Below, one piece after another: positions 2,459-22,204 of a stretch of DNA of 36,932 nt. The notes below the pieces were generated by a model. It made no database searches. It saw nothing but the letters and a program-made list of their open reading frames with translations, and was not told where the DNA came from. This DNA comes from Desulfopila aestuarii DSM 18488 (GTDB lineage Bacteria > Desulfobacterota > Desulfobulbia > Desulfobulbales > Desulfocapsaceae). The first letter of the stretch is position 1, and each line of letters begins with the position of its first letter. The translations under genes were made by a program, and so were the position numbers. The stretch is taken from the NCBI GenBank assembly GCA_945863875.1, contig CAMBBS010000041.1:1-36932 (forward strand), given 5' to 3'.

Positions 2459-2796
2459 GGCACAAAAAATTACTCAAAAAAAAATGATCCTTCCATCGAC
2501 CCCGGGTTTCACTTGCACATAATGTGCCTGAACGGGCTGCACATGTCAAGATACCGATATCATAATAAAATACAGCAAAAAACAGCGCCTCGGGGAGATG
2601 GCGGTATCGCAAAAGAAAAGGAATCCCCCGCCGGCCACCTGTTAATCTGAGAGGGGGGGCAGGCGGCTACACCGCCGCACTAGCCGGCAAGGCCGCAGAG
2701 TGCTCGCAGCCCGGCCTCTTCTGCCCCTGGCGCCGCAACATGGTTTCGGCGGTTCTTTTTTTCCCTTTTCCGCCGTCGGAGGACACGCCGGTTGCC
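2459..2796. other. Intergenic gap upstream of the acyltransferase-polymerase unit
   Basis: No credible gene is present. The half nearest the acyltransferase is AT-rich and holds a sigma-54-like element at 2514-2529. A possible sigma-70 -35 (TTGACA on the minus strand at 2544-2549) lacks a well-spaced -10. The half nearest the glycosidase-like gene is GC-rich and contains a short hairpin, GGCGG-CTACA-CCGCC at 2662-2676. It also holds a longer-looped repeat formed by CGGCGG and CCGCCG near 2750-2780, with an A-rich (minus strand) loop. These could help end transcription after the glycosidase-like gene, but no uridine tract follows them. Confidence 0.5.
2514..2529 (-). promoter_or_regulatory. 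Possible sigma-54 (-24/-12) promoter, weaker match
   Basis: The minus strand reads AGGCACATTATGTGCA. The GG and GC elements are separated by exactly 10 bases, as sigma-54 promoters require. It differs from TGGCACG-N4-TTGCW at three positions. The predicted transcription start is about 45 bases before the ATG at 2458. Its core is also a perfect 13-base palindrome (2515-2527), so a repressor site is an alternative reading. Confidence 0.4.
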
Positions 2797-4491
2797 CTAG
2801 CGGTCCAACGCCTCCTTCTTCGTGTTGACATCGAGCAGGACCTGATACTTGGGGGCCGTCGCCAACAGACCCGCTGCCCCCAACTGTGCCGGCGACTCCA
2901 GATGGCCCCAGGAACCGAAACGCGAGCGCCGTGCCCCGAGATAACTGTAGGCCATGAAGAGGTTACAGTTGATCTCCGGCTCCCCGTGCCGGGCGAAATT
3001 GCGCAGGTAGAGCCGGTACATCCGCGGGTGCACCTGGGCATCCCAAACCGCCTGGTTATAGGGCCAGTCCTGTTGCTGCCAGGGCTGCATATGCTGCCCG
3101 CCCTCGTAGACTAAATAAGCAATGCCGTAGCGGCGGGCATACAAGGCGGTCTCCGCCGTCCACTTGCCGCCCTCTTGCCCGTAGCGGAGGTCCGCGGCAT
3201 CGATAATCATCTCCGGGCTAACCTTCTCCGGTCCCATCCGCAGCCAGCGTTCATGATCTGCCCGGCCAAAGCCGAAATAGCCCGCCGCCGCCAGCGCATC
3301 GCAACCGCTGCCGTCCTCGGCAAACAGAGCGTTGAGGATTCTGCCGGTATTTTCCCTCCCGGCCTGCTGCACCGCGGCCACCCGCACCAGCCGGCTTTTC
3401 CCGCCGCCAAACTCTTCCTCGAAGATGCGAAAGGTCCTGGCCATGAGAAAGGCCGACTTCTCCGGCAGGTCGGCTGGCCGGACGTTGATTGCGGCCAGTC
3501 CCTGCCGCACCGTCGGCTCCACTGTCCGGGTCTCTTCCCGAAACCCTTCTGGCCAGTGCGGCGACACCCCGTTGTGGAGAAGCCAATGGGCCTGGTCGAA
3601 CATCGGGTTCCACGTTTCGTTGGAGTATTCAATATAACATTTCAGCCTCCGGTCGAGACGGTCGCGAATGAGCCTGGCCATCTGCCGCATGTAGTCGTCG
3701 CTGGCCATATGGGGCACGGTAAACCAGCCATCCGCGCCCAGTGCATTGGCGAGGTCGATCGCATATTCCAGGCTGATTCCCTGGGCCAGCCCCTGGCTGT
3801 AACAGTCCGGCCGGCTCCGGTCAGACCAGTGGCGCTGCACAGAGTTGTTGGTTGCCGTCCATTCCATGAAGCGCAGACAGTGAAATGAGCGCAGACCCTC
3901 AAGGTACGGCCCATAAAAGAGCGGCATCTCCTCCTCGCGGCCCTCAAAGCTTGCCGGCACAATGCGCATGTTGCGAAGCGGATTGGCCGGATCGGAACGG
4001 CTTATCTGCAGATAGCTATGTCCCCCCCTGCCATTACAATGTATGGAGGTCCGGCCGTTGCGTCTTTGGCTGTCGATATTATGCCATGTGTATTCCCCCT
4101 CGCCGTCGTGCAGCAGGACGTATTCGCCGGTGAGGGTATTGTTGATGAGAATCCGCACCCCCTGGGGGACCGCATCGACCAGAACCGGCAGGGCGAGCGG
4201 ATAGCCCTGTCCATCGCGGGGTATCCGCTCGAGCAACCCGGTGTCCCAGGAGGAATCCTTGCCGGAGAGATCAAAGGTTATCATTTTACCGGCGGTTTTC
4301 ATCAGGTCATTGAAGGGCACCGCCGTCGTCCAGTAGTTGGTGGCGTCAAGATTCATGCCGACAGGCAATTTGACCGCTCTTTCGTCGGTCTTGACAACGT
4401 CCTGCCGGCTGCCGGCAAGGCCGGCAAAGGCCCCCAGCCCGAGGACAAGAAAAACGGCGAAGGTACGAAGATATCCGGAGCGAGGCTTCAT
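2797..4491 (-). CDS. Secreted glycoside hydrolase-like protein of the EPS cluster
   Basis: A 564-residue protein with an N-terminal hydrophobic segment (residues about 9-28), consistent with a signal peptide or membrane anchor. The centre resembles clan GH-A TIM-barrel glycosidases: Y-I-E-Y-S-N-E-T-W-N places a candidate acid/base Glu at residue 292, and L-V-Y-E-G-G a candidate nucleophile Glu at 463. The region before it (L-A-N-A-L-G-A-D-G-W-F-T-V-P) resembles barrel strands in proteins often annotated as putative cellulose-binding or glycosidase-like. EPS clusters often encode a periplasmic hydrolase that trims or releases chains, so a role in processing this polysaccharide is likely but inferred. 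The ATG at 4491 overlaps the upstream GT4 stop by four bases (ATGA); the open frame's longer N-terminus lacks support. No CAZy family can be given from memory with confidence. Confidence 0.6.
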   Translation of the reverse strand: MKPRSGYLRTFAVFLVLGLGAFAGLAGSRQDVVKTDERAVKLPVGMNLDATNYWTTAVPFNDLMKTAGKMITFDLSGKDSSWDTGLLERIPRDGQGYPLALPVLVDAVPQGVRILINNTLTGEYVLLHDGEGEYTWHNIDSQRRNGRTSIHCNGRGGHSYLQISRSDPANPLRNMRIVPASFEGREEEMPLFYGPYLEGLRSFHCLRFMEWTATNNSVQRHWSDRSRPDCYSQGLAQGISLEYAIDLANALGADGWFTVPHMASDDYMRQMARLIRDRLDRRLKCYIEYSNETWNPMFDQAHWLLHNGVSPHWPEGFREETRTVEPTVRQGLAAINVRPADLPEKSAFLMARTFRIFEEEFGGGKSRLVRVAAVQQAGRENTGRILNALFAEDGSGCDALAAAGYFGFGRADHERWLRMGPEKVSPEMIIDAADLRYGQEGGKWTAETALYARRYGIAYLVYEGGQHMQPWQQQDWPYNQAVWDAQVHPRMYRLYLRNFARHGEPEINCNLFMAYSYLGARRSRFGSWGHLESPAQLGAAGLLATAPKYQVLLDVNTKKEALDR

Positions 4492-5711
4492 CGGCCGCCC
4501 CCCCCGGTCATCGGCCGGCAATATGCTGCGACAATGGTTTTCAACTGCATGCGCCAGCTGTTGGCAGGATCGTAGAACTGCTGCTGCAGGCCCTGGCAGG
4601 CAGCCTGCCGGCCCTGGTAGAAATCGATATCCTCGACCAGCCTTTCAACCGCCCGGCAATAATCCTGCCGGTCATCGGCTGCAACCTCAACCAGCGCCGG
4701 CCGGACATCGTCCACCGCCGGACAGACTGCCGAAGTGATCACCGGCCGGCGGCAAAGAACGGCCTCGGCCACTACTTTGTTAAAACCTTCCTCGAAGGCT
4801 TTGGTCGTCGGCACAATAAAGGCATGGGACTGTTCGATCAGGCGCATCATTTTTTCTCGGTGACAGTAGCCATGGATGAGGAATCTTTCCTCCAGCCCCA
4901 GCCGTTGTACCGCAAGGCGCAACCGTTCCTCACAGGTGCCATCACCCGCCAGATGCCAGATGACCCGGCCCCGCACTTCAGGCTTCAGGCGCCGGCAGAT
5001 TTCCAGCAGATCAAAAACGCCCTTGTTTTCCTCCAGCCGCCCGGCAAAAAGAATATGGAAATTCTTTTCCCCCCGCTGGGGGGGGGGTATCCCTGCAAAG
5101 GTGTCCCGACGATAGAAGGGGCGAAAACGATAAACCGGCCGCAGACTATCGCCGCCAAGCAGCTGCAGCTGGCGCCGGACATCCTCGGAGATGATGAGCA
5201 TGGCCAGGGCGCGCCGGGCAAAGAGCGGTCGGCTGAGGGCGTTGAGGATTTTCTGCCGCAGGCCGAGCTTGCCATATTTGGGCCAAAGCGTGCAGTGGAT
5301 GGTTGGCACCAGGGCCATGGTCGCGGGAGAAAACCAGGGCAAAGTAAAGAGATGGCCGGTGCTCTCCGCGGCAATAACCAGCGCCGCGCCCTCGCGCACC
5401 GCCGTGTGCATCAGGCCCCGAACATAGCGGAGCTGTTGCAGGTGATACCGCACCCCGGTCCGGGGTCGCCCCTTCGGGCGGTTTTCTATATGGAACTGGT
5501 CGCTGCGCACCAGGTCCACCCGGGGGTTCGAAGAGACAACCACACCTTTCGCGCCGAGTTCCCGGCACACGTCAAGAAACTGACCGCTGTAGGTGACCGC
5601 AACCTGATGCGCGTCGTCCTGACCAGCCTGCCAACCCTGAAAGGTTTTCACCACATCCCCCGGACCGGCGGCGTAAAAAAGACATGGGGGGCCGGTTTTT
5701 TTTCCAGACAT
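4488..5711 (-). CDS. Glycosyltransferase, GT4-like (GT-B fold)
   Basis: A 407-residue protein with a GT-B layout: a variable N-terminal acceptor domain, then the nucleotide-sugar domain starting at F-A-G-R-L-E-E-N-K-G-V (residues about 222-232). The E-x7-E signature appears as EEGFNKVVAEA at about 307-317, typical of retaining GT4 enzymes. It would add one sugar to the lipid-linked repeat unit at the cytoplasmic face of the inner membrane; donor and acceptor are unknown. The open frame runs upstream to 5900, but the ATG at 5711 is preceded by GGAGG about nine bases away, so I start there. It is separated by 35 bases from the preceding GT4 gene and overlaps the following glycosidase-like gene by four bases. 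Confidence 0.85.
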   Translation of the reverse strand: MSGKKTGPPCLFYAAGPGDVVKTFQGWQAGQDDAHQVAVTYSGQFLDVCRELGAKGVVVSSNPRVDLVRSDQFHIENRPKGRPRTGVRYHLQQLRYVRGLMHTAVREGAALVIAAESTGHLFTLPWFSPATMALVPTIHCTLWPKYGKLGLRQKILNALSRPLFARRALAMLIISEDVRRQLQLLGGDSLRPVYRFRPFYRRDTFAGIPPPQRGEKNFHILFAGRLEENKGVFDLLEICRRLKPEVRGRVIWHLAGDGTCEERLRLAVQRLGLEERFLIHGYCHREKMMRLIEQSHAFIVPTTKAFEEGFNKVVAEAVLCRRPVITSAVCPAVDDVRPALVEVAADDRQDYCRAVERLVEDIDFYQGRQAACQGLQQQFYDPANSWRMQLKTIVAAYCRPMTGGGGR

Positions 5712-5746
5712 CGTTTCTTTTCCTCCAGGGTGCAAGACGGACCACC

Positions 5747-6880
5747 TCACCACAGCCCGGGAAACTTTCGCTGCAACAACTCGGCTCTTCCCGCGGCAAC
5801 CTTTTCCCAGGTGAAGTTCCAGGCCTGAAGGTGGGCCGCACGGGCCAGTTCCGCACTGCGCGGCCGATTGTCGACCACCGCCCGCAAGGCGGTGGCCCAT
5901 TCGTCGACATCGTGCCCGAGCACCAGGCCATTTCTGCGGTGTTCGACTATTGCTCCGGCCCCCATAACCGAGACGAGGGGCAGCAGGCCATGGGCCATCG
6001 CCTCATAGGTCACCAGCGGCCCGCCCTCTTCCAGGCTGGGGAAGACAAAGCAGTCCGCTTTGTTGTAATAGCTGCCGAGATCCTCGGTAAAAGACACATG
6101 GGTAATATCCGGCCGATCGAAATAATGGCCGAAATTGTTCCTGATAGTGGCATCCATGGTCCCGCAAAAGACCAGTTTGCCCTTGATGGCGGCCCTGTCC
6201 CAGGCCGCAAGCAGAAGAGGTACTCCCTTGCGAACACAGAGGGTGCCGACGAAGAGAAAGACAGGCTGAACATTGTTGCGTGGCGCAGGATCGAGAGCGG
6301 AAAAACGGTCAGGAGACCAGCCATAGCTGGAGGCTAATAATTTTTCTTCGTCCACGCCATTGTCCAGCATCGACGAATACACCTGGGGATGAGGACAAAA
6401 AACCGCATCCGCCATGTCGAGCTTTTCTTTTTCCTCGCCGATGCGCGCCTCGGTTATGGTGTGGTCCGGCCGAAGGCGGAGGTCGTGGTAGGCGGTGTCA
6501 AGGATTGTTTTGGCGGTTGCCTGGTGGCAGTTGATCCGTTCAAGGACAATCCTTTTACCCTGCCGCTTGAATTTGCTGAACACGTCGAGGGAGAGCCCGG
6601 CCCAGAGATACACAAAAGGATTGGACTCTTCCTTCTTCAGGGCCAGTTTTTCCACAAGCCTTTGCGGCGCCCTGGCCTTACCGAAGCGGTAGACAAGTTT
6701 TTTCCTGAGTGTCCCCATAGCCGGCCTTACCCACCAGCCGTCGAGACCTTTGTCACAACTCGGTCCGTAAAGGGGGCTCACCAGCCCTGCCGTATTCCAG
6801 TGACTGCACAGCGCATACGGCACGCTCGCATTGCCGGTTCCATTGATATGGTACCCAAAGACCACGGGAAGATGATTCAT
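5747..6880 (-). CDS. Glycosyltransferase, GT4-like (GT-B fold)
   Basis: A 377-residue GT-B protein. The C-terminal domain begins with F-L-F-V-G-T-L-C-V-R-K-G-V (residues about 208-220). It carries EEGGPLVTYEAMAHG (284-298), the E-x7-E donor-binding signature of GT4. The N-terminal half is not similar to the neighbouring GT4, so the two probably use different acceptors. The ATG at 6880 follows a GAGGAGG ribosome binding site; earlier in-frame codons have none. The 121-base gap before it is the largest inside this part of the cluster and holds a weak -24/-12 motif, so an internal promoter is possible. The predicted role is assembly of the EPS repeat unit. Confidence 0.85.
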   Translation of the reverse strand: MNHLPVVFGYHINGTGNASVPYALCSHWNTAGLVSPLYGPSCDKGLDGWWVRPAMGTLRKKLVYRFGKARAPQRLVEKLALKKEESNPFVYLWAGLSLDVFSKFKRQGKRIVLERINCHQATAKTILDTAYHDLRLRPDHTITEARIGEEKEKLDMADAVFCPHPQVYSSMLDNGVDEEKLLASSYGWSPDRFSALDPAPRNNVQPVFLFVGTLCVRKGVPLLLAAWDRAAIKGKLVFCGTMDATIRNNFGHYFDRPDITHVSFTEDLGSYYNKADCFVFPSLEEGGPLVTYEAMAHGLLPLVSVMGAGAIVEHRRNGLVLGHDVDEWATALRAVVDNRPRSAELARAAHLQAWNFTWEKVAAGRAELLQRKFPGLW

Positions 6881-6936
6881 CGATTTCCTCCTCTCCATAA
6901 AAAAGCCCACCCCTCTGGCCATCTGCCCGGCCACTC

Positions 6937-6952
6937 TGCACCAATCCGGCCA
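6937..6952 (-). promoter_or_regulatory. Possible internal sigma-54 (-24/-12) promoter, weak match
   Basis: The minus strand reads TGGCCGGATTGGTGCA, with GG and GC ten bases apart and three mismatches to TGGCACG-N4-TTGCW. It lies in the only long gap between the flippase and the first GT4 gene, with a predicted start about 45 bases before the ATG at 6880. Such motifs can occur by chance in GC-rich DNA. I give it weight mainly because better matches lie in the equivalent gaps at 12,049 and 20,547. Confidence 0.25.
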
Positions 6953-7001
6953 TCAATCCAGGGTGACAAAACGACACCTGCCGAACTCTTGGTCAAGAAC
7001 C

Positions 7002-8579
7002 TCATTTCGCCCCTCCTGCTGATGCGTCGGCCACCTTTGCGCCCATCACCCCCAGCACTTTTTGCCGCACCCATGCTTTTTCGCCCGCCCGCACCCCGCC
7101 GGTAACCAGCAGAAGCACCAGCGACACGGCCACCTGCACCAGGCCGGCTCCGGCAAGGATACCGGCCAGCCAAAAGCGACCGTAACTCGCGGCCGAAAGG
7201 AGCCACGTCAGCGCCAGAAAAAGCATAGCTCCGGAAAACACGCACACCAGGACCGGATGCAGAATCTGCCGGAGATATTCCCGTGGCGAGATACGGAAAA
7301 ATTGATTGGTCAAGACAATGAAATAACAAGAAGCAATGGCCGTGCTGCCGGCCACGCCCAGTGCCGCGCCAACCAGGCCAAGGCTATAGGCCAGGGGTGG
7401 CGTCATGACCAGACAGAGCACCACATTGACCACCGAGTAGCGGATCTCCCAGCCGAGCCGGGCGAATCCCCTGGCCGCCGCGCTGCTGGTGCCGGTAAGC
7501 AGATGAATAAGCTTCCCGGCGGAAACAACATACATCACCGCCACCGCTTCCTGGTATCCGTCTCCGAGCCAGACCTGGATAGCCCAGGGCGCAACCGCCA
7601 TGAGATAGGTGAAGAGGATTGCGGTCAACATGCCCATGTAGCGCGACGAGTCTACAAACAACCCCCGGGCCTGGGCCATGTCGCCCTGGCCCTGGAGCTG
7701 TGACATCAGCGGCATCACCACGCCGCTGATGTCTGAGGGAATTCTCGCCCCGGTAAAGGGCATTTTCCTGCCGATCTCGTATATACCCGTGGCCGCCAGG
7801 CCGAGCATTCTCGTGATGATCAGCCGGTCAAAAGTCGACATGAAGATGTTTATTATTGCGAGAAGCTGCATCTTCCCCCCGTAAGAAAGGAGCAGGGTCA
7901 AAGAGGGCCGGTCACAGTATCGCAGCCGTATGGCCAGCCCCGGCACCAGCCTGTAGGCAAAAACCATGTTGATGACAATGGCCAGGAGATAACGAACGAG
8001 AAATGCCGCCATCATCCCGAAGACGCCGAAGCCGGCCAGCAGAAACACCACAATGAGGAGCAGTTCAAGAAAGGAGGTGAGCAGGCGGACCTTGGCGGTC
8101 AACACCATGTGCTGCATGCCGTCGAGAGCCCTGCCAAAACAGTTGAAGGAAATATCCAGCATGAAAACCAGCCCGGTCCCCATGAACAGCAGGCCCGCCA
8201 TCCCCCGCAATTCCGGCTCAATGTTCAGGACGTCGAGAAGCAGCCCCATGCCCAGCCACATGCCGGTCATCAGCACGAGGGAAGCGATGCAGGTAAGAAG
8301 CAATCCGGTGCTGAGAAGCCTGTTGGCCCGTTCCACTTCCTGCCGGGCATGGAATTCGGCGACATACTTGATATAGGTTGACTCCAGGCCGGTTGAGGTC
8401 AGGGCAAGAAAACTGATGACGACAAAACAGAGACTCCATAATCCGTATTCCGCCAGAGTGAGATAATGGAGAATAAAGGGGGTAAGGAGGAATCGGCTGC
8501 CGAGATACCACCCACTGGCAAGCATCGAGTAATACGAATTCCTTGTCGCCTTCCCCGCCACAGTTTCGGCCTTTTTCAT
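7002..8579 (-). CDS. wzx: Polysaccharide flippase (Wzx/MOP superfamily)
   Basis: A 525-residue protein with about 12-14 membrane segments. The N-terminus, SRFLLTPFILHYLTLAEYGLWSL, is typical of the polysaccharide-specific transporters of the multidrug/oligosaccharidyl-lipid/polysaccharide superfamily. Members flip undecaprenyl-diphosphate-linked repeat units from the cytoplasmic to the periplasmic leaflet for polymerisation. Its start overlaps the stop of the Wzc-like gene by four bases (ATGA), so it belongs with wza and wzc in one unit. The functional name is from family and context; substrate specificity cannot be read from the sequence. Confidence 0.88.
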   Translation of the reverse strand: MKKAETVAGKATRNSYYSMLASGWYLGSRFLLTPFILHYLTLAEYGLWSLCFVVISFLALTSTGLESTYIKYVAEFHARQEVERANRLLSTGLLLTCIASLVLMTGMWLGMGLLLDVLNIEPELRGMAGLLFMGTGLVFMLDISFNCFGRALDGMQHMVLTAKVRLLTSFLELLLIVVFLLAGFGVFGMMAAFLVRYLLAIVINMVFAYRLVPGLAIRLRYCDRPSLTLLLSYGGKMQLLAIINIFMSTFDRLIITRMLGLAATGIYEIGRKMPFTGARIPSDISGVVMPLMSQLQGQGDMAQARGLFVDSSRYMGMLTAILFTYLMAVAPWAIQVWLGDGYQEAVAVMYVVSAGKLIHLLTGTSSAAARGFARLGWEIRYSVVNVVLCLVMTPPLAYSLGLVGAALGVAGSTAIASCYFIVLTNQFFRISPREYLRQILHPVLVCVFSGAMLFLALTWLLSAASYGRFWLAGILAGAGLVQVAVSLVLLLVTGGVRAGEKAWVRQKVLGVMGAKVADASAGGAK

Positions 8580-10771
8580 TGTTCCGCGGTTCCCTTTTTA
8601 CTGAATTTTGCCGCGAGAGCACAGGCCATGCCAGAACAGGCGCCTGACACTGCATCGAGGCAGACGTCAAACCAGAGTTTCTTTTTTTCCCCTCCCCAAT
8701 TCAGGACGGGGGCCAGGGCAGGCACCCCGAGGCGAAGAAAGAGCTCGGCAGTCCGCCGAAGATCCCGGTACAAGGCGGAATCCCCCTGACTGACGAGCAC
8801 CACCACATCGGCCCTGACGGCGAGATATTCGGTGAAATCAGCGGCCATTACCGGGCAGGAGTCGATACAGATCAGGTCATACTGCGACTTCACCTCGTGC
8901 AGGAAGTCACTGAGTTTTCTGGCCATCACCCGGTCAGGGCTCAGGGTGTGGGAAAAGATGATGTCGATGTCACGCCGTGGGTCATGGTAGAGACAGTCCG
9001 CCCATGCCTTCGTGCCTGCCAGCAAGTCTTCAATTCCGGGGTGGGAAAAAGGGACGTTCATTTTCTCAAACAGGTCTTCCCGCCGCAGGTTGCCGTCGAG
9101 GACCAGCACCCGTCCAACATGGTAGGTAAGGGCGTGGGCGGTATTGAGCAGTATTTCCGTGGTCCCGGATTTCTCGTCCACCGCGGTGAACAGAAAAATC
9201 CGTCCCCCATGGTCTTCATATTCCCGGTACAATCGAATAGCCAGGCTGCGTATCGCTTTGGCGGCGGTGGCGTCCCGCCGGTCGCTGAGAAGATGGAGGA
9301 AACAGCTCCCTTTCGGCCCTCGGGAAATCGGCCATGACGGGGGGTGGCCGAGGGCGCCGGTGATGTCTTTCGGGCTGCGCAGGCGATTGTCGAAAAACTC
9401 CAGCAGCAGAAACACTCCGCCGACGCCGCCGAAAGAGGCGGCTACACACAACATCAGCAGCTTTTTGATGTTTGAGCCGGCCGGGCTTTCCGGCACCATG
9501 GCCCGGGACTCGACGGTCACCCGCAGCGGGGATCGGGATTCGGCCTCGAGCTCCTGGATGCGGTTGTTGATACGAAAGAGCAGATCCCTGGCATGGCTGA
9601 GTTTCGTTTCCAGGGACTTGCTGTGCAGCAAAGCGGATGAATTCTTCCCTGAATTCGACTTTGCCGCATCCAGGGCGGTGGCTATGGCCTGTTCATTCTT
9701 CTCGGCCTCGTGAAAACTATTTTCTTTTTTGATCAGTTCCCGGTTGAGTTCAAGATCTCGTTTGCCGTAGGCGATCGCCTGGACCGTGTCCCTGGTTTCC
9801 CGGCGCTGTTTTTTCTCATACTCACGCATCGCCTCCATCCGTCCTTCGACCCTCTTCCTGTCTTCATTACCTTTGGTGACTCCGTCGATAGTCGCGCGCA
9901 TAACCTGAAGCTGCTGGTACGTCCAGGAACTGGTGAAATCTATGGCCCGATTATCCATGACCGCTTCCTCGATGAGCGGATTGAGGGAAAGTTTGGCTAA
10001 TTGTTCGGTCTTTTTTTTCTCAAAATTAAAGGCATGTTCCGCTTCGACCCGCCGACTGAAGGCGTGGACATAGGCCTCCTGCAGGTTGACGGCCAGTTTC
10101 TGCCAGAGATTGAACTCTTCGGAAAAGGAGCTGGAAAGCACCGAGGTGGCGGATGTCTGCAGCTCCTCCTCCTTTATCTGAATGGTTTTGACCAATTTTT
10201 CTTTTTCTTCGGTCAGGTACCGCAGTCTCCGTTCGTTTTTATTTTCCAGCTCCTCTTCCATTTTCTTCAGGTAGGCATCGATGATGGCGTTGAGCATCGG
10301 CGCCAGTCCCTCCCGGTTCGGTCCCTGGACGGACAACTCGACGAGATGGGTGGCCGCCACCGGGGTAACGGTCACCATTCCCTGGAGCAGGGCGACACAA
10401 TCCTTCGCCGGCAAATTTTCAGGGAAAATACCCTTCTTGTCTGTCTCGGCCATGCCCTCAATAGACATTGAAAGAATGGTAAATTCCTTTATCCGCCGGG
10501 CCTGGGTGCGCACATAGTCGTGATAGAAAGCGGTGATTGAAAGATCCTCGGATTTGGTGATAAGAGAGGCAACCACCGGGTCGATCTTGAGGCTGGCATG
10601 GACCTCATAATTCGGTCGGGCCATTTTCAGCACCACTGGAACGAGCATGGCAAGAATGAACAGCCCGGCGATGAAGATCATCAGCCCATACCGAGAAACA
10701 AAGCCGAAAATATCGAAAGGTTTCTTTGACCTGCCGGTGAGTTCCAGGCTGTGGTCGACTTGTCTACCCAT
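8576..10771 (-). CDS. Chain-length determinant with Wzc-like tyrosine-kinase domain (probably degenerate)
   Basis: A 731-residue inner-membrane protein. It has a first transmembrane segment at about 28-50, a Wzz-type periplasmic domain with long charged coiled coils (about 170-410), the proline motif VPESPAGSN and a second transmembrane segment at about 436-460, then a BY-kinase-like domain. Walker A' (VLVLDGNLRR, 555-564) and Walker B (YDLICIDSCP, 631-640) are recognisable. The Walker A region reads TAVDEKSGTTEI (529-540) and lacks the usual PxGEGKS glycine pattern. There is also no tyrosine cluster at the C-terminus. It probably sets chain length and gates export together with the Wza-like protein; kinase activity is doubtful. 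The open frame can start at a TTG at 10795, but I chose the ATG at 10771, which has AAGGAG upstream. Confidence 0.85.
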   Translation of the reverse strand: MGRQVDHSLELTGRSKKPFDIFGFVSRYGLMIFIAGLFILAMLVPVVLKMARPNYEVHASLKIDPVVASLITKSEDLSITAFYHDYVRTQARRIKEFTILSMSIEGMAETDKKGIFPENLPAKDCVALLQGMVTVTPVAATHLVELSVQGPNREGLAPMLNAIIDAYLKKMEEELENKNERRLRYLTEEKEKLVKTIQIKEEELQTSATSVLSSSFSEEFNLWQKLAVNLQEAYVHAFSRRVEAEHAFNFEKKKTEQLAKLSLNPLIEEAVMDNRAIDFTSSWTYQQLQVMRATIDGVTKGNEDRKRVEGRMEAMREYEKKQRRETRDTVQAIAYGKRDLELNRELIKKENSFHEAEKNEQAIATALDAAKSNSGKNSSALLHSKSLETKLSHARDLLFRINNRIQELEAESRSPLRVTVESRAMVPESPAGSNIKKLLMLCVAASFGGVGGVFLLLEFFDNRLRSPKDITGALGHPPSWPISRGPKGSCFLHLLSDRRDATAAKAIRSLAIRLYREYEDHGGRIFLFTAVDEKSGTTEILLNTAHALTYHVGRVLVLDGNLRREDLFEKMNVPFSHPGIEDLLAGTKAWADCLYHDPRRDIDIIFSHTLSPDRVMARKLSDFLHEVKSQYDLICIDSCPVMAADFTEYLAVRADVVVLVSQGDSALYRDLRRTAELFLRLGVPALAPVLNWGGEKKKLWFDVCLDAVSGACSGMACALAAKFSKKGTAEQ

Positions 10772-10805
10772 GGTCGTACATTCTCCTTCAACCAAAGCGT
10801 GCCGG

Positions 10806-12064: not shown

Positions 12065-12187
12065 GCCCCGGCCAAACACGACATGCAACTGATATATTTA
12101 TATTTTATAGATTTCTTGATACCCTGGACACGGCCTCGGCCTATCAAGCTGAGAGGTTTGCCCCCGGCCGCACTGTTAAAGCGAGGG

Positions 12188-14288: not shown

Positions 14289-14293
14289 GGCCT

Positions 14294-15780: not shown

Positions 15781-15783
15781 ATG

Positions 15784-16224
15784 CTACTCCCCCGTGCCGA
15801 AGCGTTTTTTAAGTTTCAGAATATTCCAGCCATCCTTTCGCTGGTAGCTTACCTCGTCCATTGTTTCTTTCATCAGGTAGATTCCATAGCCACTCTCGGG
15901 CGTCTCGGCAAAGTCCGGCGGCATGACCGTGGCAAAATCAAAGGCCGCGTTCTGATCTTTGATCATGACCACCAGGTAATCTTCCTCAAGAGCAAAACAG
16001 ACCTGTAACCTGTGGGCCTCGGCCTTGCCGGCGGGAGAGTATTTGACCGCGTTGGTGCAGGCCTCACCGGCCGCCAGTTCCACCGAATCAAGAAAAACGT
16101 TTTCCTCACCCGGCACCTTGCCGGTAACGATCTGGTAGTAGGCCGCGGCGATGTTTCTCACCGCGATCACCCCCAGTTGCACCTTTTCGAGGGATGCCGG
16201 AGTTGTCAGTTCTATCATATGCAT
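15784..16224 (-). CDS. RsbW/SpoIIAB-like serine kinase (anti-sigma/partner-switch kinase)
   Basis: A 146-residue GHKL ATPase of the HATPase_c_2 type. The N-box is SVELAAGEACTNAVKYS, with E54 and N58 as the expected ATP/Mg ligands. The G1 region is KDQNAAFDF (89-97), slightly degenerate compared with the usual D-x-G-x-G-F-D. The G2-like segment is ESGYGIYLMKETMDEVSY (110-127). In Firmicutes these kinases phosphorylate a STAS antagonist and bind a sigma factor; in many Gram-negatives they control enzymes or diguanylate cyclases instead. Two STAS partners are encoded just upstream (16,215-16,583 and 18,028-18,399). No PP2C phosphatase or sigma factor is in the window. The ATG at 16,224 or the ATG at 16,218 (overlapping the STAS stop as ATGA) may be used. 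Confidence 0.8.
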   Translation of the reverse strand: MHMIELTTPASLEKVQLGVIAVRNIAAAYYQIVTGKVPGEENVFLDSVELAAGEACTNAVKYSPAGKAEAHRLQVCFALEEDYLVVMIKDQNAAFDFATVMPPDFAETPESGYGIYLMKETMDEVSYQRKDGWNILKLKKRFGTGE

Positions 16225-16583
16225 AGAGGCACCCCCTGCACCGCTTCTGCCTGGTAACTGGCGACAGCGGACTCGCTGGAATCATAGATATCAAAGATAC
16301 GGTACACTCTGGTCAACTCGAACACCTTGCGGACTTTATCGCTGAGTGATGCTATTCTGATATCTCCCTGTATTTCCCGCACCCGCCGCAAAGACGTCAC
16401 CAAACTGCCCAGCCCACCGCTGTCAATGTAACTGACCCGGGACAGGTCGATGACGTAACAGGCTACGCCCTGGGCGGTCAGGGTTCTCATCTTTTCCTTG
16501 AAGTCATCGGCCGCGCCGGCGTCAAAACGGCCCTGCAAAGAGAGAAGCATACTGTTGGTTTTACGCAGCGAAGTGATTTCCAT
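16215..16583 (-). CDS. STAS-domain anti-anti-sigma-like protein (SpoIIAA type)
   Basis: A 122-residue single STAS domain. VIDLSRVSYIDSGGLGSLV (44-62) contains the conserved D54-S55 pair; S55 aligns with the Ser phosphorylated in SpoIIAA/RsbV. The tail LTRVYRIFDIYDSSESAVASY is also typical. When dephosphorylated, such proteins bind the RsbW-like kinase and release its other partner. The stop overlaps the start region of the kinase gene, which argues that the two are made in a fixed ratio and are partners. Thirteen bases separate it from the preceding nucleotidyltransferase-like gene. Confidence 0.87.
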   Translation of the reverse strand: MEITSLRKTNSMLLSLQGRFDAGAADDFKEKMRTLTAQGVACYVIDLSRVSYIDSGGLGSLVTSLRRVREIQGDIRIASLSDKVRKVFELTRVYRIFDIYDSSESAVASYQAEAVQGVPLCI

Positions 16584-16596
16584 TGTCTATCTCCGA

Positions 16597-18015
16597 TTAA
16601 AGCGGCAGGCTTTGCGCTGGTTTATCTGTTGCATGGGCTGAGGTATTAGACCAGACGATCTTTTGCAGTATCCGCATGTCATGTCCCAGACCCCGGTTTG
16701 CGGCGTGATAGCGCTCAGCTATCTCTTCTTCCATTGAGCCCGGAAGCACATCCTCACTGTCCGAATACGCAAATGCCCCCGGCAGATACTCTGGGAAACC
16801 ACGCAGCAGCTCCCGATTAGCCCGGTGGTCGGCAAGGAGCCGATTGCCCACCAGGAGCAACTTTCCACGGATAACCGCGGCGAGCAGAGGAAATGTAGCC
16901 AGGCCCAGGGCGGAAAAGAGTTTTCCGGCTAGGCTGTGCCGATTGTTGCGGACCACGGGCAAGGCCAGGCAATCGCCTCTTTCGGTCAGCAGAAAGTTCC
17001 TGTATTCAAGGTGCCAGTCATGCTGGATTTTTTGCAGGCCGGCAAGGAGGTAATAGGGCACAACCCATACTGCCGCAAGGAGCATAGCCAGGAGGGTGCC
17101 GACCACGCGGCCGCCGTATCCCGGTGTTTGCGGGGTGATCGGCGAGAGAAGACAGCCGTCCTCAATGTCGAGAATAGCCCCGTCCCGTGGTGAGATAACA
17201 CGATCCCCGCTGATAATTCGCTCCGACAGAAACAGTTCCCGCCCCAGATAGCTTCCTTGCTGGACAATGCTCCGCTTTACCTGGGTACCGCTGTCGATAA
17301 TCACCCTGGAACCAATGACCACACCGGGGCCGATCTGTGCATTGCCAAGCAACCGTACATTGTCGCCGATGATTACCGGCGGGACGATCGCCACACCTCT
17401 GCTTATTTCGACGTTCTGCCCAAGAAGAATGCCGCGATCCGTGCCATAACCAGGCAGAACATAATGCGCCTGCTCAGCCTCGAGCACCTGCAGGCTTATC
17501 TGAAAAAGATCGTCGAGGCAGGTCAGAGGAGAAAGAGCAAAATCCTGGGCCAAAGAACCGTCGGAGATGCTCTTCATGCAGCGGATATCTTCGGTGACAA
17601 GAACTGTTCCCGAGGCACAACTGCTCAACAGGCCAGTATCGACGCCGGCCAAAGGATCACACCCCTTGGCTTTGTCATAGTGGATAAACAGGAAACCATC
17701 GATGAGCAGCAAAGGAACTGCATGACAAAACGTACTGTTTTTCAAAAGAAGAGAGTCAATCGATTCGTCTGCCTTCATCAGAGAGTAACTGATGTCAAGC
17801 CCCCACCGTTCACCACCCGCGAAATAGGTCTCAATATCCGGACCGGACTCATCCACCACTATCCGCACCTCGGTGCACCCGCAGAGCATGGCGAAATCCA
17901 GTTTGAATTCCAGTAAGGGCTTATTGCAGATGGTCACCATGGCAGGATGGTGGCCAGGGTAAAATTCCCGAAGCCAGCCACAGTCACGTTCCCGGAATAT
18001 GATAAGTGCCTTCAT
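16597..18015 (-). CDS. Degenerate nucleotidyltransferase + beta-helix + sugar-transferase-like membrane protein
   Basis: A 472-residue protein with three parts. Residues 1-190 follow a sugar nucleotidyltransferase (M-K-A-L-I-I..., N-K-P-L-L-E-F-K-L, then TEVRIVVDES), but the GGxGTR loop and the PKxM lysine that bind the nucleotide are absent. Residues about 195-270 are hexapeptide beta-helix repeats (GDNVRLLGNAQIGPGVVIG). A membrane segment follows at about 302-325. The rest resembles the cytoplasmic part of undecaprenyl-phosphate sugar transferases, with LLLVGNRLL (386-394) where these enzymes have SLVGPRP, and a C-terminal DMRILQKIVWS. The KFRSM and DELPQ motifs are missing, so catalysis is unlikely. 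It sits between two STAS genes and could be a regulatory or scaffolding subunit of the priming enzyme; that is inference. Confidence 0.6.
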   Translation of the reverse strand: MKALIIFRERDCGWLREFYPGHHPAMVTICNKPLLEFKLDFAMLCGCTEVRIVVDESGPDIETYFAGGERWGLDISYSLMKADESIDSLLLKNSTFCHAVPLLLIDGFLFIHYDKAKGCDPLAGVDTGLLSSCASGTVLVTEDIRCMKSISDGSLAQDFALSPLTCLDDLFQISLQVLEAEQAHYVLPGYGTDRGILLGQNVEISRGVAIVPPVIIGDNVRLLGNAQIGPGVVIGSRVIIDSGTQVKRSIVQQGSYLGRELFLSERIISGDRVISPRDGAILDIEDGCLLSPITPQTPGYGGRVVGTLLAMLLAAVWVVPYYLLAGLQKIQHDWHLEYRNFLLTERGDCLALPVVRNNRHSLAGKLFSALGLATFPLLAAVIRGKLLLVGNRLLADHRANRELLRGFPEYLPGAFAYSDSEDVLPGSMEEEIAERYHAANRGLGHDMRILQKIVWSNTSAHATDKPAQSLPL

Positions 18016-18027
18016 GGGGTGATTTCC

Positions 18028-18399
18028 TCAGGTATGGATGGTACTGGCTGCATCTGCCGGATGTTCAAGAAAGGAAGCCAGCGCCTCCTCCACCGTCGCA
18101 AATATCTGAAACACCTTGTCAACCCGGGTAAGCTCCAGGAGCATTCCCACCCTCGGCGTCAGTGCCGCCAGACGAATATCGCCGCCTTCCCCGAGAACCT
18201 TGCGCAGACAGGAGACGAAGACGCCGAGGCCGCTTGAATCCATGTAGGCAAGAGCGCTACAGTCAAACACCAGGCATGGCCCATCATCGACAATCCGAGC
18301 CGCTATTTCCTTGCGGAATGCGGCAGAGGTGGAACTGTCCAGCCGGCCTGACAAGGCAACAAGCTGTGTCTTGCCACTCATCCGATAGGTATTCTTCAT
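18028..18399 (-). CDS. STAS-domain anti-anti-sigma-like protein (SpoIIAA type)
   Basis: A 123-residue STAS domain with LVFDCSALAYMDSSGLGVFV, whose D54-S55 pair and GLG turn match the phosphorylation site of SpoIIAA. It is clearly related to the other STAS protein of this unit, but the two differ through most of their length. They may have separate partners or compete for the same RsbW-like kinase. It starts two bases after the stop of the priming sugar transferase. The ATG at 18,399 has GGGG about ten bases upstream; the open frame's TTG at 18,405 is less likely. Confidence 0.87.
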   Translation of the reverse strand: MKNTYRMSGKTQLVALSGRLDSSTSAAFRKEIAARIVDDGPCLVFDCSALAYMDSSGLGVFVSCLRKVLGEGGDIRLAALTPRVGMLLELTRVDKVFQIFATVEEALASFLEHPADAASTIHT

Positions 18400-18401
18400 T
18401 A

Positions 18402-19115
18402 TCAATATGCCCCTTTTCCCGCCAGGACGGCAGGGATAGTACGTAATAATATATGGATGTCTTTTCTCAAACTGGTGCTTTTGATGTATTCAAGGTCAAG
18501 ATGCACCTGGCCTGTAAACGGGATATCACTTCGGCCACTCACCTGCCAGATACAGGTAATACCGGGCAGTGCATGGAGCCGCTTTCGCTGTTCCAGGGTA
18601 TACAGGGCAACTTCACCGGGCAGGGCCGGCCGTGGGCCGACCAGGCTCATGTCACCACGCAACACATTGAAAAGCTGCGGTAACTCGTCAATACTGAATT
18701 TCCTGATGACCTTGCCCGTTTTGGTCACCCGTGGATCGTCTTTCATTTTAAAAATGACACCGTCTTTCGACTCGTTTTTTGCGCCAAGCTCGACCTTCAT
18801 CGTATCTGCTCCGACCACCATGGAACGAAATTTGAAAAACCGGAAATGACGGCCATCTTTTCCGACCCTGATCTGCGAATAGAATACCGGTCCAGGATTC
18901 TCCAGGTAAATAAGGAGGGCGGTAACGGTAAATATCGGCAAAGATAGGACCAGGGCAGTGGCCGTCACCAGGTAATCAAAAAGCCGTTTTACCCGCTTGG
19001 TCCAGATTATCGTTTGTTGCCAGACGAGGATTTTGGCGCGGTATTGCCGTGGTGATAATGACCGTGACAACGCATCGAGCATTTTATAGCGTTGTTCCGT
19101 GTGTTGTGCGTTCAT
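18402..19115 (-). CDS. Undecaprenyl-phosphate sugar-1-phosphate transferase (priming enzyme)
   Basis: A 237-residue short-form bacterial sugar transferase (PglC/WcaJ catalytic-domain type). One hydrophobic segment lies at about 45-72, probably a re-entrant membrane helix. It is followed by NPGPVFYSQIRVGKDG, KFRSM (95-99), S-I-D-E-L-P-Q-L-F-N-V-L-R-G-D-M-S-L-V-G-P-R-P (141-163, with the catalytic D143-E144 pair) and LPGITCIWQVSGRSD. It transfers a sugar-1-phosphate from a UDP-sugar to undecaprenyl phosphate and starts the repeat unit. All catalytic motifs are present, unlike the two degenerate relatives in this cluster. The ATG at 19,115 has a GGAG site about eight bases upstream; the gene begins 15 bases after the WecG-like gene. 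Confidence 0.92.
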   Translation of the reverse strand: MNAQHTEQRYKMLDALSRSLSPRQYRAKILVWQQTIIWTKRVKRLFDYLVTATALVLSLPIFTVTALLIYLENPGPVFYSQIRVGKDGRHFRFFKFRSMVVGADTMKVELGAKNESKDGVIFKMKDDPRVTKTGKVIRKFSIDELPQLFNVLRGDMSLVGPRPALPGEVALYTLEQRKRLHALPGITCIWQVSGRSDIPFTGQVHLDLEYIKSTSLRKDIHILLRTIPAVLAGKGAY

Positions 19116-19130
19116 AGCCTTACTCCGTCA

Positions 19131-20474
19131 TCAATTTCTTCGAGAACCAATTTTCCACCGCAGTACCCGAAAGAGAAACAGCGGGTTGCCGATCACGTAG
19201 CGCTTCCACATACGGCCGGGTTCCTGGAGTATGCGGTACAGCCATTCCAGGCCCATTTCCCGCAGCCACCGCGGCGCCCGCCGGGTATTGCCCGAATAGA
19301 AATCGAAGAGGCCGCCAACACCAAGAACCGCCCCGGCCTGCAGTCTGCCCCTGTTGGCGGCAATCCATTTTTCTTGCAAGGGTGCACCAAAGGCGACCAG
19401 GACAATATCCGCCCCGGATGCATTGATCACCTCAAGCACTGCTGAATTTTCTTTTTCATGGTGGAAAAAACCATGATGGGTGCCGGCGACCGTCACGGTA
19501 TATTTCTCGGTAATATTGTCAGCCATGACCTCCGCCACCCCGGGGCGCCCCCCGAGCAGAAAAAGTTTATATCCCTTGGCCGCGGCCATGGCACAGAGAT
19601 AGGGGAGCATGTCGGTGCCGTTGACGTTTTCTTTTAAGGGGCTGCCCATCAACTTGCAGGCCAGGGTCAGGCCGATACCGTCGGGAAAAACGTTCTCCGC
19701 CTTGGCCAAAATCTCCTGATAATCTCCGTCGGCAAAGGTTTTATTGAGGCAGTCCGGATTGACAAAATAGCAAGCCTCACTTCCGTGCCCGGTTGCCACC
19801 ATCTTGTCGATGAGTGCGACGGCCTCGACCATGGTCAGATTGGCAAATTTGATGCCAAAGAGATCTATGGTTCCCTGGATGGGGCGGGTACGGCTCGCAA
19901 AAAACCAGGCGGGCAAGGCGCGCAGCAGGAGAAAAAGATCGGCGGCCGGTTTTTTCGTAAAGCGATATTCCCATTCGGTGGCCAAACGCCCCTCATGGCC
20001 GATATTGCTGCTGCGGCGAATATACCACAGCGAGATAATTCCAGGCCTGGAACCTAAAAGATAGCCACTTTCCGGGCCAAATCGGTGCGTCGCCACCTCC
20101 TCCATGCTCGCTCCGACAAGACCTATTTTTCCGCTAACCACAGGGTAAAGCAGGGCAAGATTGGCGACGGCAGGCCAGGCAACGGCGAAGGTCGAGACGG
20201 CCAGCGGCTTTCCCCTGCGGCCAACGATGATTTTTCGCTGAAAAACATCTTTGCCGGTAAGTCCCTGCCGGAGCATCAGCAGACCGTGCAGCGGCAAGGT
20301 CAGACCGCAGCCCAGGACGAGGCTGATCAGCAGTTCAACAAGGCGGTAGAGCAATCCAGTGCAGCGCAGGCCCACCCTGAACACGGTTCTCATCCGCAGG
20401 AAACGATACGACAGCCGCAATCGCTGTTCCAGTTTATCGAGGTTGTCAGCTATGACGACCGGTGCTTCCTTCAT
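19131..20474 (-). CDS. Sugar-transferase-like domain fused to WecG/TagA/CpsF glycosyltransferase (GT26)
   Basis: A 447-residue fusion. Residues 1-195 resemble a sugar transferase (membrane segment about 42-68, K-I-G-L-V-G-A-S near 117, then SRPGIISLW and a distal R-A-L-P-A-W-F). The K-F-R-S-M and D-E-L-P-Q motifs are lost. Residues about 200-447 are a full WecG-type domain: YFVNPDC, FPDGIGLTLACKLMG (D265), ENVNGTDMLPYL, VAFGAPLQEKW, and GLEWLYRILQEPGRMWKRY near the C-terminus. GT26 enzymes add the second sugar to a lipid-diphosphate sugar. It is the first gene of the ten-gene unit, 15 bases before the complete priming enzyme, so the two probably act in sequence. The ATG at 20,474 has AAGG upstream; the frame extends to 20,567 without better support. 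Confidence 0.87.
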   Translation of the reverse strand: MKEAPVVIADNLDKLEQRLRLSYRFLRMRTVFRVGLRCTGLLYRLVELLISLVLGCGLTLPLHGLLMLRQGLTGKDVFQRKIIVGRRGKPLAVSTFAVAWPAVANLALLYPVVSGKIGLVGASMEEVATHRFGPESGYLLGSRPGIISLWYIRRSSNIGHEGRLATEWEYRFTKKPAADLFLLLRALPAWFFASRTRPIQGTIDLFGIKFANLTMVEAVALIDKMVATGHGSEACYFVNPDCLNKTFADGDYQEILAKAENVFPDGIGLTLACKLMGSPLKENVNGTDMLPYLCAMAAAKGYKLFLLGGRPGVAEVMADNITEKYTVTVAGTHHGFFHHEKENSAVLEVINASGADIVLVAFGAPLQEKWIAANRGRLQAGAVLGVGGLFDFYSGNTRRAPRWLREMGLEWLYRILQEPGRMWKRYVIGNPLFLFRVLRWKIGSRRN

Positions 20475-20546: not shown

Positions 20547-20562
20547 AGCAAGAGGTATGCCA
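20547..20562 (-). promoter_or_regulatory. Sigma-54 (-24/-12) promoter of the ten-gene EPS unit
   Basis: The minus strand reads TGGCATACCTCTTGCT, preceded by T as in the extended consensus. It matches TGGCACG-N4-TTGCW at all but two positions and has the required ten bases between GG and GC. The predicted start is near 20,536, about 60 bases before the first gene of the unit. Confidence 0.7.
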
Positions 20563-20780
20563 AACAATCTTCAACGAGACAACAGGCTGATATAAATTGT
20601 GTTTTTTTCCACGACCCTCCATCCCTGCCTTGCAACGGCCTCTTATAATGAAAGAAAACGAAAAACCGATCTCTAAATTTGAGAGCAGATGCACCTTTTT
20701 CCTGGAAATATTGATAACCTTAACCTATACTCGCAGCAATCAACACATCGCCTCCTGGGAGCATTGCCCCGGGAACAATT

Positions 20781-20810: not shown

Positions 20811-20857
20811 AGCATGGAGAAATCACAATATTATGGCTGACATCAGGTGAGATAACC

Positions 20858-22204
20858 ATGCAAGATGCAACAAGCTTCACACTTCTCGTCGTCGATGATG
20901 AGCAATCCGTGCTGCAGTCCCTGAAACGCTTTTTCGCAAAATCGGGGTTTCAGGTGCTGCTCGCCAATAATGGTCAGAAAGGCCTTGAACTCCTCTCTCT
21001 TCACCATATCGATCTCCTGCTGCTTGATCTGGTAATGCCGGGCATGGACGGCCTGACCGTTCTTCGAGAAGCAAAAAAAATGTCCCCCGCCTTGAAGGTC
21101 ATTATCCAGACCGGCCACGGGGGGATAAACGAAGCGGTGGAGGCAGTCAAAAACGGCGCCTCCGATTTTCTCGTCAAGGGAGATTCCCCGGAAATTTTAC
21201 GCACCAGGGTTGGTCTGATCCATGAACAGTGGCAACTGCGCATGGACAACAAGGTGCTGCGTGGGGAGAGCAATATCTTTGATTTTGACAAACTGACAGG
21301 CGCCTCTTCGGCGATGACCAAGCTCAAGGAAATGATTGTCAGGGTTGCTCCGACGGAAACAACGGTGCTTATCCAGGGGGAAAGCGGCACCGGCAAGGAA
21401 CTCGTCGCCCAGGCCCTCCACCACCACAGCCAACGGCGAAATCGTCCCTATATCGTCGTGGATTGCGCAACAATCAGCGAGACCGTGATCGAATCAGAGC
21501 TTTTCGGACATGAAAAGGGGGCCTTCACCGGGGCTGACACATCCACCGGGGGACTGGTCCGTGCCGCCGACACAGGCACCCTGTTCTTTGATGAAATTGG
21601 CGAACTCTCCCCGGGTGTTCAGGCGAAACTCCTGCGAATTATTCAGGAACGAACCGTCCGACCGGTGGGTTCAACCAAAAACCATCAGGTCGACATCCGT
21701 ATCATTGCCGCAACAAACAGGAATCTCCTCGAAGAAGCCGCCGAAAAAAGATTCCGCCAGGATCTCTACTACCGGTTGAGCACGGTAACACTCACTGTCC
21801 CGCCCCTGCGGGAACGTGAAGGGGATATAGCCCAACTCACCACCAAAATCCTCGACTATTACCATAAGGCTGAAGCCCCCGTGCCGTCCGTCACCGACAG
21901 GACCCAGCAGCTCCTTGACCGCTACGATTGGCCAGGGAATGTTCGGGAACTGGAGAACGTCCTGCGGGGTGCCCTGGTATTTGCCGACGAGGGCAAGATT
22001 ACCCCCCGAGACCTTCCCCCCGCCGTTGGTGTCCAGGGGAGCTCCGAAGAGGCCAAGGTCAAAAATGGCAGCCTGGCAGCCTATGAACTTGCGGCAATAA
22101 AAAATGCCCTCGCCGAAGCCGGCAACAATCGCAGTCAGGCAGCTAAAATTCTCGACATTGCCGAGGCAACACTGTATCGGAAAATAAAAAATTACCGCTT
22201 GTAG
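20858..22204 (+). CDS. NtrC-family sigma-54-dependent response regulator
   Basis: A 448-residue protein. It has a receiver domain (VVDDE at 11-15; phosphoacceptor D57 in [13 protein letters not shown]; Lys at 107 in LVKGD, where Gly replaces the usual Pro after this Lys). An AAA+ domain follows, with Walker A GESGTGKE (174-181), GAFTGA (221-226, the loop that touches sigma-54) and Walker [10 protein letters not shown] (243-251). A Fis-type helix-turn-helix is near the end ([22 protein letters not shown]). Such proteins hydrolyse ATP to open sigma-54 promoters after phosphorylation. It is divergent from the EPS cluster, whose promoters carry -24/-12 motifs, so it is the obvious candidate activator; PrsR-type regulators of other EPS loci are a known parallel. 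Its likely kinase is the convergent PAS kinase. Confidence 0.93.

What the first reader, a model, noticed from the sequence alone, without database searches (positions are those of the whole stretch)
2514..22204. EPS cluster appears to be a sigma-54 regulon with its own NtrC-type activator
Two strong -24/-12 motifs face the EPS genes: TGGCATACCTCTTGCT before the ten-gene unit and TGGCATGGCTGTTGCA before wza. They sit in the two main gaps and share the TGGCAT variant. Weaker versions lie in the other two gaps (6,937 and 2,514). A complete GAFTGA-bearing response regulator is encoded divergently at the head of the cluster. Together this predicts that the EPS is switched on as a block by one phosphorylation signal. 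EPS control by sigma-54 regulators is known elsewhere (for example PrsK/PrsR with PEP-CTERM systems), but I saw no exosortase or PEP-CTERM gene here.
Basis: partly seen in the sequence, partly recalled or inferred. Interest (0 to 1): 0.72.

Follow-up and report, generated by a model that had tools for sequence, protein, structure and literature searches.

The report
Sigma-54 switch for an exopolysaccharide cluster
A gene cluster for making a sticky surface sugar appears to carry its own switch: an activator protein plus matching DNA docking sites at set distances before three operons, a layout shared with green sulfur bacteria and resembling a known biofilm switch of a squid symbiont.

Summary
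Both strong -24/-12 sites are real: the 4.69-Mb genome holds only 18 exact TGGCAYRN4TTGCW sites (reversed-pattern control 2), two of them here. New evidence ties them to the neighbouring activator. Upstream lies a 15-bp palindrome, CTCTCAAnTTGAGAG, at about 91 and/or 123 bp before the -24 box. One copy also sits 124 bp before the "weak" 2,514 site, which is therefore probably a third promoter; the 6,937 site has none and is chance-level. Genome-wide, the half-site at the -123 spacing plus a -24/-12 core occurs twice, both in this cluster. A model trained on five loci finds such promoters in 5 of 6 held-out loci whose activator has the same helix-turn-helix, and in 0 of 19 loci without it. The palindrome nearly equals the Vibrio fischeri SypG enhancer TTCTCANNNTGMDWN, and the first operon carries STAS and RsbW-like genes reminiscent of SypA/SypE. 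I read it as a Syp-like sigma-54 EPS regulon, a new variant of a known kind. DNA binding, expression, kinase and signal are untested; two paralogous regulators share the helix-turn-helix, so a single signal is not established.

The parts
20858..22204 (+). NtrC-type response regulator (448 aa), divergent from the first operon; receiver with D57, T85, K107 (counted by eye), GAFTGA, Fis-type HTH ending [15 protein letters not shown]
   Evidence: Pfam PF00072, PF00158, PF25601, PF02954; translation; HTH comparison
20547..20562 (-). P1 -24/-12 element TGGCATACCTCTTGCT, before the ten-gene unit
20671..20685 (-). P1 upstream palindrome CTCTCAAATTTAGAG, 123 bp before the -24 box
20640..20654 (-). P1 second palindrome CTTTCATTATAAGAG, 92 bp before the -24 box
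12049..12064 (-). P2 -24/-12 element TGGCATGGCTGTTGCA, before wza
12141..12155 (-). P2 upstream palindrome CTCTCAGCTTGATAG, 91 bp before the -24 box
12173..12187 (-). P2 weak second copy CCCTCGCTTTAACAG at 123 bp (score 5.6, doubtful)
2514..2529 (-). P3 weak -24/-12 element AGGCACATTATGTGCA, before the third operon
2639..2653 (-). P3 upstream palindrome CTCTCAGATTAACAG, 124 bp before the -24 box
12188..20474 (-). First operon, ten genes: WecG-type glycosyltransferase, Bac_transf, STAS, 472-aa hexapeptide protein, STAS, RsbW-like HATPase, GT2, hexapeptide acyltransferase, GT2, acyltransferase
18028..18405 (-). STAS protein 1 (keeps DSSGLG)
   Evidence: Pfam PF01740; alignment
16215..16583 (-). 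STAS protein 2 (keeps DSGGLG)
   Evidence: Pfam PF01740; alignment
15784..16224 (-). RsbW-like HATPase_c_2 kinase (NCBIfam RsbW models hit below their cut-offs)
   Evidence: Pfam PF13581; NCBIfam
2797..11897 (-). Second operon: wza, chain-length/tyrosine-kinase-like protein (weak Pfam match below cut-off), flippase, two GT4 glycosyltransferases, 574-aa protein without Pfam match
7..2458 (-). Third operon: hexapeptide acyltransferase 1949-2458, wzy-like polytopic protein 468-1949 (inferred, no Pfam match), VanZ-like ORF at the contig end
22334..25057 (-). PAS hybrid histidine kinase, convergent neighbour of the regulator; possible but untested partner
   Evidence: Pfam

Best explanation
The EPS cluster is a sigma-54 regulon with three promoters (P1, P2, P3) driven by the divergently encoded NtrC-type response regulator. 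When phosphorylated by a kinase not yet known, the regulator binds 15-bp palindromes CTCTCAAnTTGAGAG about 91 and/or 123 bp upstream of the -24 box, contacts sigma-54 RNA polymerase by DNA looping and opens the three operons together. Shown by computation: the sites, their spacing, their rarity in the genome, their recurrence in relatives and their co-occurrence with one HTH type. Inferred: binding by this protein, dependence on phosphorylation, coordinate expression. Also inferred: the STAS and RsbW-like proteins of the first operon add a second, post-translational control on the sugar-transferase complex, as SypE and SypA act below transcription in Vibrio fischeri.
For: Two of 18 exact -24/-12 sites of the genome are here. 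Palindrome found upstream of 15 sites, LLR 131.2 against at most 35.5 in 8 shuffles; 14 sites, 131.9 against at most 38.0 in 30 shuffles. In ten loci with the regulator, 21 of 23 palindrome-promoter pairs fall at 90-92, 110-113 or 121-125 bp; in the four held-out loci with pairs, 11 of 12, the twelfth at 144. Held-out test 5 of 6 loci with the HTH against 0 of 19 without. Half-site plus core at the -123 spacing: 2 places in the genome, both here, control 0. The 16 other exact genome sites have no palindrome above 10.3. rpoN present. Linked regulators share [AS]EATLYR[KR], absent from the 25 other relatives' EBPs compared.
Against: No binding or expression data. Two C50 paralogues and one in G011 share the HTH signature. 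L082 has the HTH but fails the promoter test. P3 has a poor -24/-12 core and no good second palindrome; P2's second copy is weak. The -91 pattern also hits one site on C21, with one hit in its reversed control. A distant homologue without the HTH, L099, has a strong -24/-12 site (18.7). In other orders two of six subfamily loci show the full layout, at other spacings (80/109 and 100/128) and before non-EPS genes. A real-sequence control of homologous upstream regions also reached LLR 105.3, with another motif. The kinase is unidentified, and no receiver-SpoIIE phosphatase lies in the window.
Confidence: 0.83

Rival explanations
1. Sigma-54 does drive the cluster through these palindromes, but one or both C50 paralogues are the main activators or share the sites, so the EPS answers several signals.
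For: C50 regulators are 53% and 50% identical and carry SEATLYR; a palindrome scoring 14.3 lies beside one of them.
Against: Gene adjacency and divergence of the window regulator; in relatives the regulator is next to the module. C50 shows no palindrome paired with a good -24/-12 site (best combined 18.8).
Confidence: 0.2
2. The STAS and RsbW-like genes form a classical anti-sigma/anti-anti-sigma switch that controls an alternative sigma factor, and have nothing to do with the transferases.
For: RsbW and SpoIIAB models hit the HATPase, below cut-off; five SpoIIE phosphatases exist elsewhere in the genome.
Against: The genes sit between transferase genes in Desulfobulbales-type and Chlorobiaceae clusters. 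In L096 and L098 two STAS domains are fused to the WecG glycosyltransferase. SypA, the closest studied case, acts below transcription (PMC12369376 passages).
Confidence: 0.25
3. The -24/-12 matches are fortuitous and the operons use sigma-70-type promoters; the palindromes belong to another regulator.
For: Loose -24/-12 matches are frequent; no transcript data.
Against: Exact-site rarity, set spacing between palindrome and core, held-out recurrence, an adjacent GAFTGA activator.
Confidence: 0.07
4. The likeness to the Vibrio SypG enhancer is convergence: Fis-type HTH activators often read short inverted repeats, and STAS genes joined EPS clusters independently.
For: The LuxO site TTGCAWWWTGCAA has the same layout (PMC10162802 passages); subfamily members in other orders control non-EPS genes. 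SypG sequence was not compared.
Against: Match at the core TCTCANNNTGA together with STAS, RsbW-like and receiver-SpoIIE genes in related loci.
Confidence: 0.5

Closest known systems
Vibrio fischeri syp locus (SypG, SypA, SypE)
   Same: EPS locus under a sigma-54 response regulator reading TTCTCANNNTGMDWN (PMC10162802 passages), nearly the palindrome found here; a STAS protein (SypA) controlled by SypE below transcription (PMC4517449 and PMC12369376 passages)
   Different: Different biosynthetic genes as far as named; here two STAS proteins and a separate RsbW-like kinase; no receiver-SpoIIE protein in the window, though relatives have one in the locus; SypG sequence not compared
PrsK/PrsR control of PEP-CTERM genes
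   Same: NtrC-type regulator, sigma-54 motif with an upstream, sometimes repeated motif, linked to EPS (PMC1569441 passages)
   Different: Upstream motif ends TTTACA and lies on average 62.8 nt before the sigma-54 motif; TIGR02915 score 366.2 below its cut-off 502.6; no exosortase in the genome
EPS/biofilm enhancer-binding proteins of Desulfovibrio vulgaris (DVU0110, DVUA0057)
   Same: Sigma-54 response regulators assigned to EPS and biofilm operons in a sulfate reducer; most regulons hold one to four operons (PMC4641369 passages)
   Different: TCTCA and STAS do not occur in that paper's main text; its motif figures and supplements were not seen, so identity of motifs is untested

Membership tests
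Sigma-54-dependent promoter with enhancer-binding protein | -24(GG)/-12(GC) elements with fixed spacing | tested here: met
   P1 and P2 exact; P3 weak
Sigma-54-dependent promoter with enhancer-binding protein | rpoN in the genome | tested here: met
   PF00309 match over cut-off
Sigma-54-dependent promoter with enhancer-binding protein | Upstream activator sites shared by the promoters | tested here: met
Sigma-54-dependent promoter with enhancer-binding protein | Transcript starts and rpoN dependence | not testable with these tools
   needs RNA and mutants
NtrC-type response regulator | Receiver, AAA+ with GAFTGA, Fis-type HTH | tested here: met
Syp-type EPS control | Enhancer TTCTCANNNTGMDWN | tested here: met
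   Compared by eye: consensus fits except its first base, C for T; single copies differ at further bases, e.g. TTA for TGA in the P1 copy
Syp-type EPS control | STAS protein encoded in the EPS locus | tested here: met
   two STAS genes
Syp-type EPS control | SypE-like kinase/phosphatase with receiver in the locus | tested here: not met
   An RsbW-like kinase is present, but no SpoIIE match lies in the window: the five in the genome are on C59, C4, C4, C50 and C22. Receiver-SpoIIE genes lie in six related loci
Syp-type EPS control | Homology of the regulator to SypG specifically | not tested
   SypG sequence was not fetched
PrsR / PEP-CTERM regulation | TIGR02915 above cut-off | tested here: not met
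   366.2 against 502.6
PrsR / PEP-CTERM regulation | Exosortase (PF09721) in the genome | tested here: not met
   0 matches; genome 98.5% complete, so absence is not absolute

The most novel reading that the evidence does not exclude
The two-tier Syp circuit (a sigma-54 activator reading a TCTCAnnnTGA enhancer plus STAS partner switching) is an old EPS control module shared by Desulfobulbales-type bacteria and Chlorobiaceae, not a Vibrio speciality, and its STAS proteins act directly on the WecG or priming glycosyltransferases, as WecG-STAS-STAS fusions in two related clusters suggest. That would give the STAS regulator SypA, whose mechanism was described as unknown, a concrete target.
Probability: 0.35. 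Interest if true: 0.75.

Novelty: new variant of a known kind. Interest (0 to 1): 0.6.

Why it matters
It turns a motif guess into a testable regulon: one activator, three operons, named binding sites and spacing. If right, it extends to sulfate-reducer relatives and green sulfur bacteria a control logic known from squid-symbiont biofilms. The WecG-STAS fusions offer a direct target for STAS regulators of EPS; SypA's mechanism was called 'as-yet unknown' in 2015 (abstract start of PMC4517449).

Tried and rejected
Rejected as promoters: 6,937 (9.0) and 8,618 (15.2); neither has an upstream palindrome. Rejected: PrsR/PEP-CTERM membership. A loose sigma-54 pattern gave no clear enrichment. The half-site at the -91 spacing found P2 plus one site on C21, with one hit in the reversed control. 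The nearest regulators in 57 genomes were, apart from G011 (56%) and the two C50 paralogues, at 45% identity or less among those listed. C50 and G011:C88 gave no palindrome paired with a good -24/-12 site. Motif widths 14, 16 and 18 gave weaker or shifted motifs; 15 and 17 gave the same palindrome.

Rows to know about in the counts. Of the 19 loci without the HTH, L074 begins 62 bp before the WecG gene and cannot show a promoter, and L094, L096-L099 and L101 are distant homologues; 12 remain as informative. L078 has a truncated regulator without HTH. L095 is nearly a copy of L076, so the independent held-out count is nearer 4 of 5. L099 was in the first motif set (15 regions) and dropped (14 regions). 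Loci fetched by both routes are duplicates (L064/L065 and L073, L066 and L074, L067/L068 and L075, L069 and L087, L070/L071 and L077); each entered once. L213 and L214 come from one genus.

Not run: comparison with the SypG sequence, structure prediction, metagenome searches. Literature searched: (open-licence PMC papers only).
Full report
Check of the observation. Both strong sites are present on the minus strand at 20562-20547 and 12064-12049. A loose scan shows no clear overall enrichment (30 found, mean 21.3 expected, 6 of 100 shuffles reach 30). Exact sites are rare, however: 18 in 4.69 Mb against 2 for the reversed pattern, two of them in this window. Seventeen of the 18 have an ORF of at least 100 aa starting between 120 bp before and 600 bp after the site, one of them NifH-like by eye, a classical sigma-54 target. 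With a matrix of recalled shape the two sites score 17.5, the best in the window; among 200 simulated windows, 63 have a top hit of 15 or more and 42 a second hit of 14 or more. rpoN is present and no exosortase was found.

The cluster. The first operon (20474-12188) holds a WecG-type glycosyltransferase, a Bac_transf sugar transferase, STAS, a 472-aa hexapeptide protein, STAS, an RsbW-like HATPase, GT2, a hexapeptide acyltransferase, GT2 and an acyltransferase. The second runs from wza to a 574-aa protein without Pfam match; the third has a hexapeptide acyltransferase, a wzy-like protein (inferred) and a VanZ-like ORF. The window is the whole of contig C41. Same-family genomes include contigs of the same length as records of Desulfosediminicola flagellatus and Desulforhopalus vacuolatus, so the organism is probably in Desulfocapsaceae (family name recalled).

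The upstream palindrome. Related clusters were fetched with an alignment of the 472-aa protein: 130 relatives, best 80 kept, of which the 22 loci L072-L093 match best, in Desulfobulbales-type and Chlorobiaceae records (L072's title says Rikenella). A palindromic motif search on 220 bp upstream of 15 -24/-12 sites found CTCTCAAnTTGAGAG: LLR 131.2 against at most 35.5 in 8 shuffles. With 14 sites it was 131.9 against at most 38.0 in 30 shuffles. Real-sequence controls: 16 other genome sites 51.3 (own shuffles at most 46.8); 24 upstream regions of homologous genes in loci without the HTH 105.3 (shuffles at most 52.6) with a different motif. Homology can thus raise the LLR, so position and held-out tests weigh more.

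Position. Palindromes lie 123 and 92 bp before P1, 91 bp before P2 (weak copy at 123) and 124 bp before P3. The 6,937 and 8,618 sites have none. In ten loci with the HTH, palindromes of 9 or more and -24/-12 sites of 13 or more within 30-300 bp form 23 pairs: nine at 90-92, three at 110-113, nine at 121-125, one at 144 and one at 240. Five of these loci trained the model on the stretch 40-160 bp upstream, which favours such distances. In the four held-out loci with pairs (L081, L084, L086, L093), 11 of 12 pairs fall in the three classes and one at 144. Copies about 31 bp apart equal three helical turns (recalled).

Specificity. CTCTCA followed at the -123 spacing by GGCAYN6TGC occurs twice in the genome, at P1 and P3, with no hit in the control. 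The -91 spacing finds P2 and one site on C21, with one control hit. The 16 other exact -24/-12 sites have no palindrome above 10.3.

Which activator. Regulators linked to the module share [AS]EATLYR[KR] in the HTH; 25 EBPs taken from other loci of relatives do not, while the two C50 paralogues and the G011 relative do. A palindrome model trained on 8 promoters of five loci was combined with the -24/-12 matrix. Held-out loci with the HTH exceeded the best of 40 simulations of themselves in 5 of 6 cases (L081, L084, L086, L093, L095; not L082), loci without it in 0 of 19. Of the 19, twelve are fully informative; L095 is nearly a copy of L076. A -24/-12 site alone is not exclusive: L099, without the HTH, has one of 18.7, and several others have hits of 13-14.4. 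Among 395 genomes of the phylum, six matches from outside the order score 554-594 bits and the next best 497. Of those six loci, four have palindromes of 12 or more and two also a strong -24/-12 site (L209 at 100/128 bp, L212 at 80/109 bp); the downstream genes that gave Pfam hits are not EPS genes. So the subfamily's site is not EPS-specific and the spacing is not universal.

Second layer (inferred). The STAS proteins keep DSSGLG and DSGGLG. An RsbW-like kinase is present. Receiver-SpoIIE proteins occur in six of the seven related loci whose candidate genes I scanned (L073, L075, L079, L081, L090, L098; not L076). None of the five SpoIIE proteins of this genome is in the window. In L096 and L098 two STAS domains are fused to a WecG glycosyltransferase, which suggests that STAS proteins act on the transferase complex.

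Known systems. The V. fischeri SypG site is TTCTCANNNTGMDWN (quoted in PMC10162802, passages seen; the original paper is not held). SypE controls the STAS protein SypA below transcription (PMC4517449 and PMC12369376, passages). PrsR differs in upstream motif, distance and score (PMC1569441 passages; PMC9850573 passages). D. vulgaris has EPS-linked sigma-54 regulators (PMC4641369 passages). A survey ties sigma-54 to the cell exterior (PMC3162934, search listing only). Ten searches of the open-licence library listed no paper that I recognised as describing this palindrome with this module; closed papers and supplements were not searched.

Conclusion. The regulon reading is right in substance and now rests on shared, positioned binding sites. 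A single signal is not established, since paralogues share the HTH type and a second control layer is likely.

Noticed in passing
L096:8333-9862 and L098:8355-9935: WecG-family glycosyltransferase fused to two STAS domains, in a Calditrichaeota MAG and Desulfobacter vibrioformis; L097's homologue has no STAS.
   Followed up: partly
G000 contig C50 (L032, L179): Two paralogues of the regulator with the same HTH lie in a signalling-rich contig with KaiB/KaiC-like genes (by eye), HD-GYP-like proteins (by eye), a receiver-PAS-SpoIIE protein and glycosyltransferase-like ORFs.
   Followed up: partly
L072 (DZBJ01000059.1): Record titled Rikenella microfusus, yet its 472-aa protein is 54% identical and its regulator 68% identical to those of this Desulfobulbales-type window; the name looks wrong.
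   Followed up: no
window 19131-20567: The WecG ORF called from TTG 20567 includes the P1 promoter; ATG 20474 is the likely start. ORF calls overrun the promoter in several relatives too.
   Followed up: yes
L078:7095-8912: A Chlorobiaceae locus with a truncated regulator ORF and a short WecG-like ORF, and no palindrome of 13 or more, as if the switch had decayed.
   Followed up: no
window 27831-34503: Four genes in a row alternate solute-binding proteins (SBP_bac_3-like below cut-off, DctP) with PAS histidine kinases, apparently a separate sensing unit.
   Followed up: no
L209:11253-11396 and L212:9191-9315: In other orders the same regulator subfamily has tandem palindromes before -24/-12 sites, upstream of genes that are not EPS genes or have no Pfam match.
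   Followed up: partly
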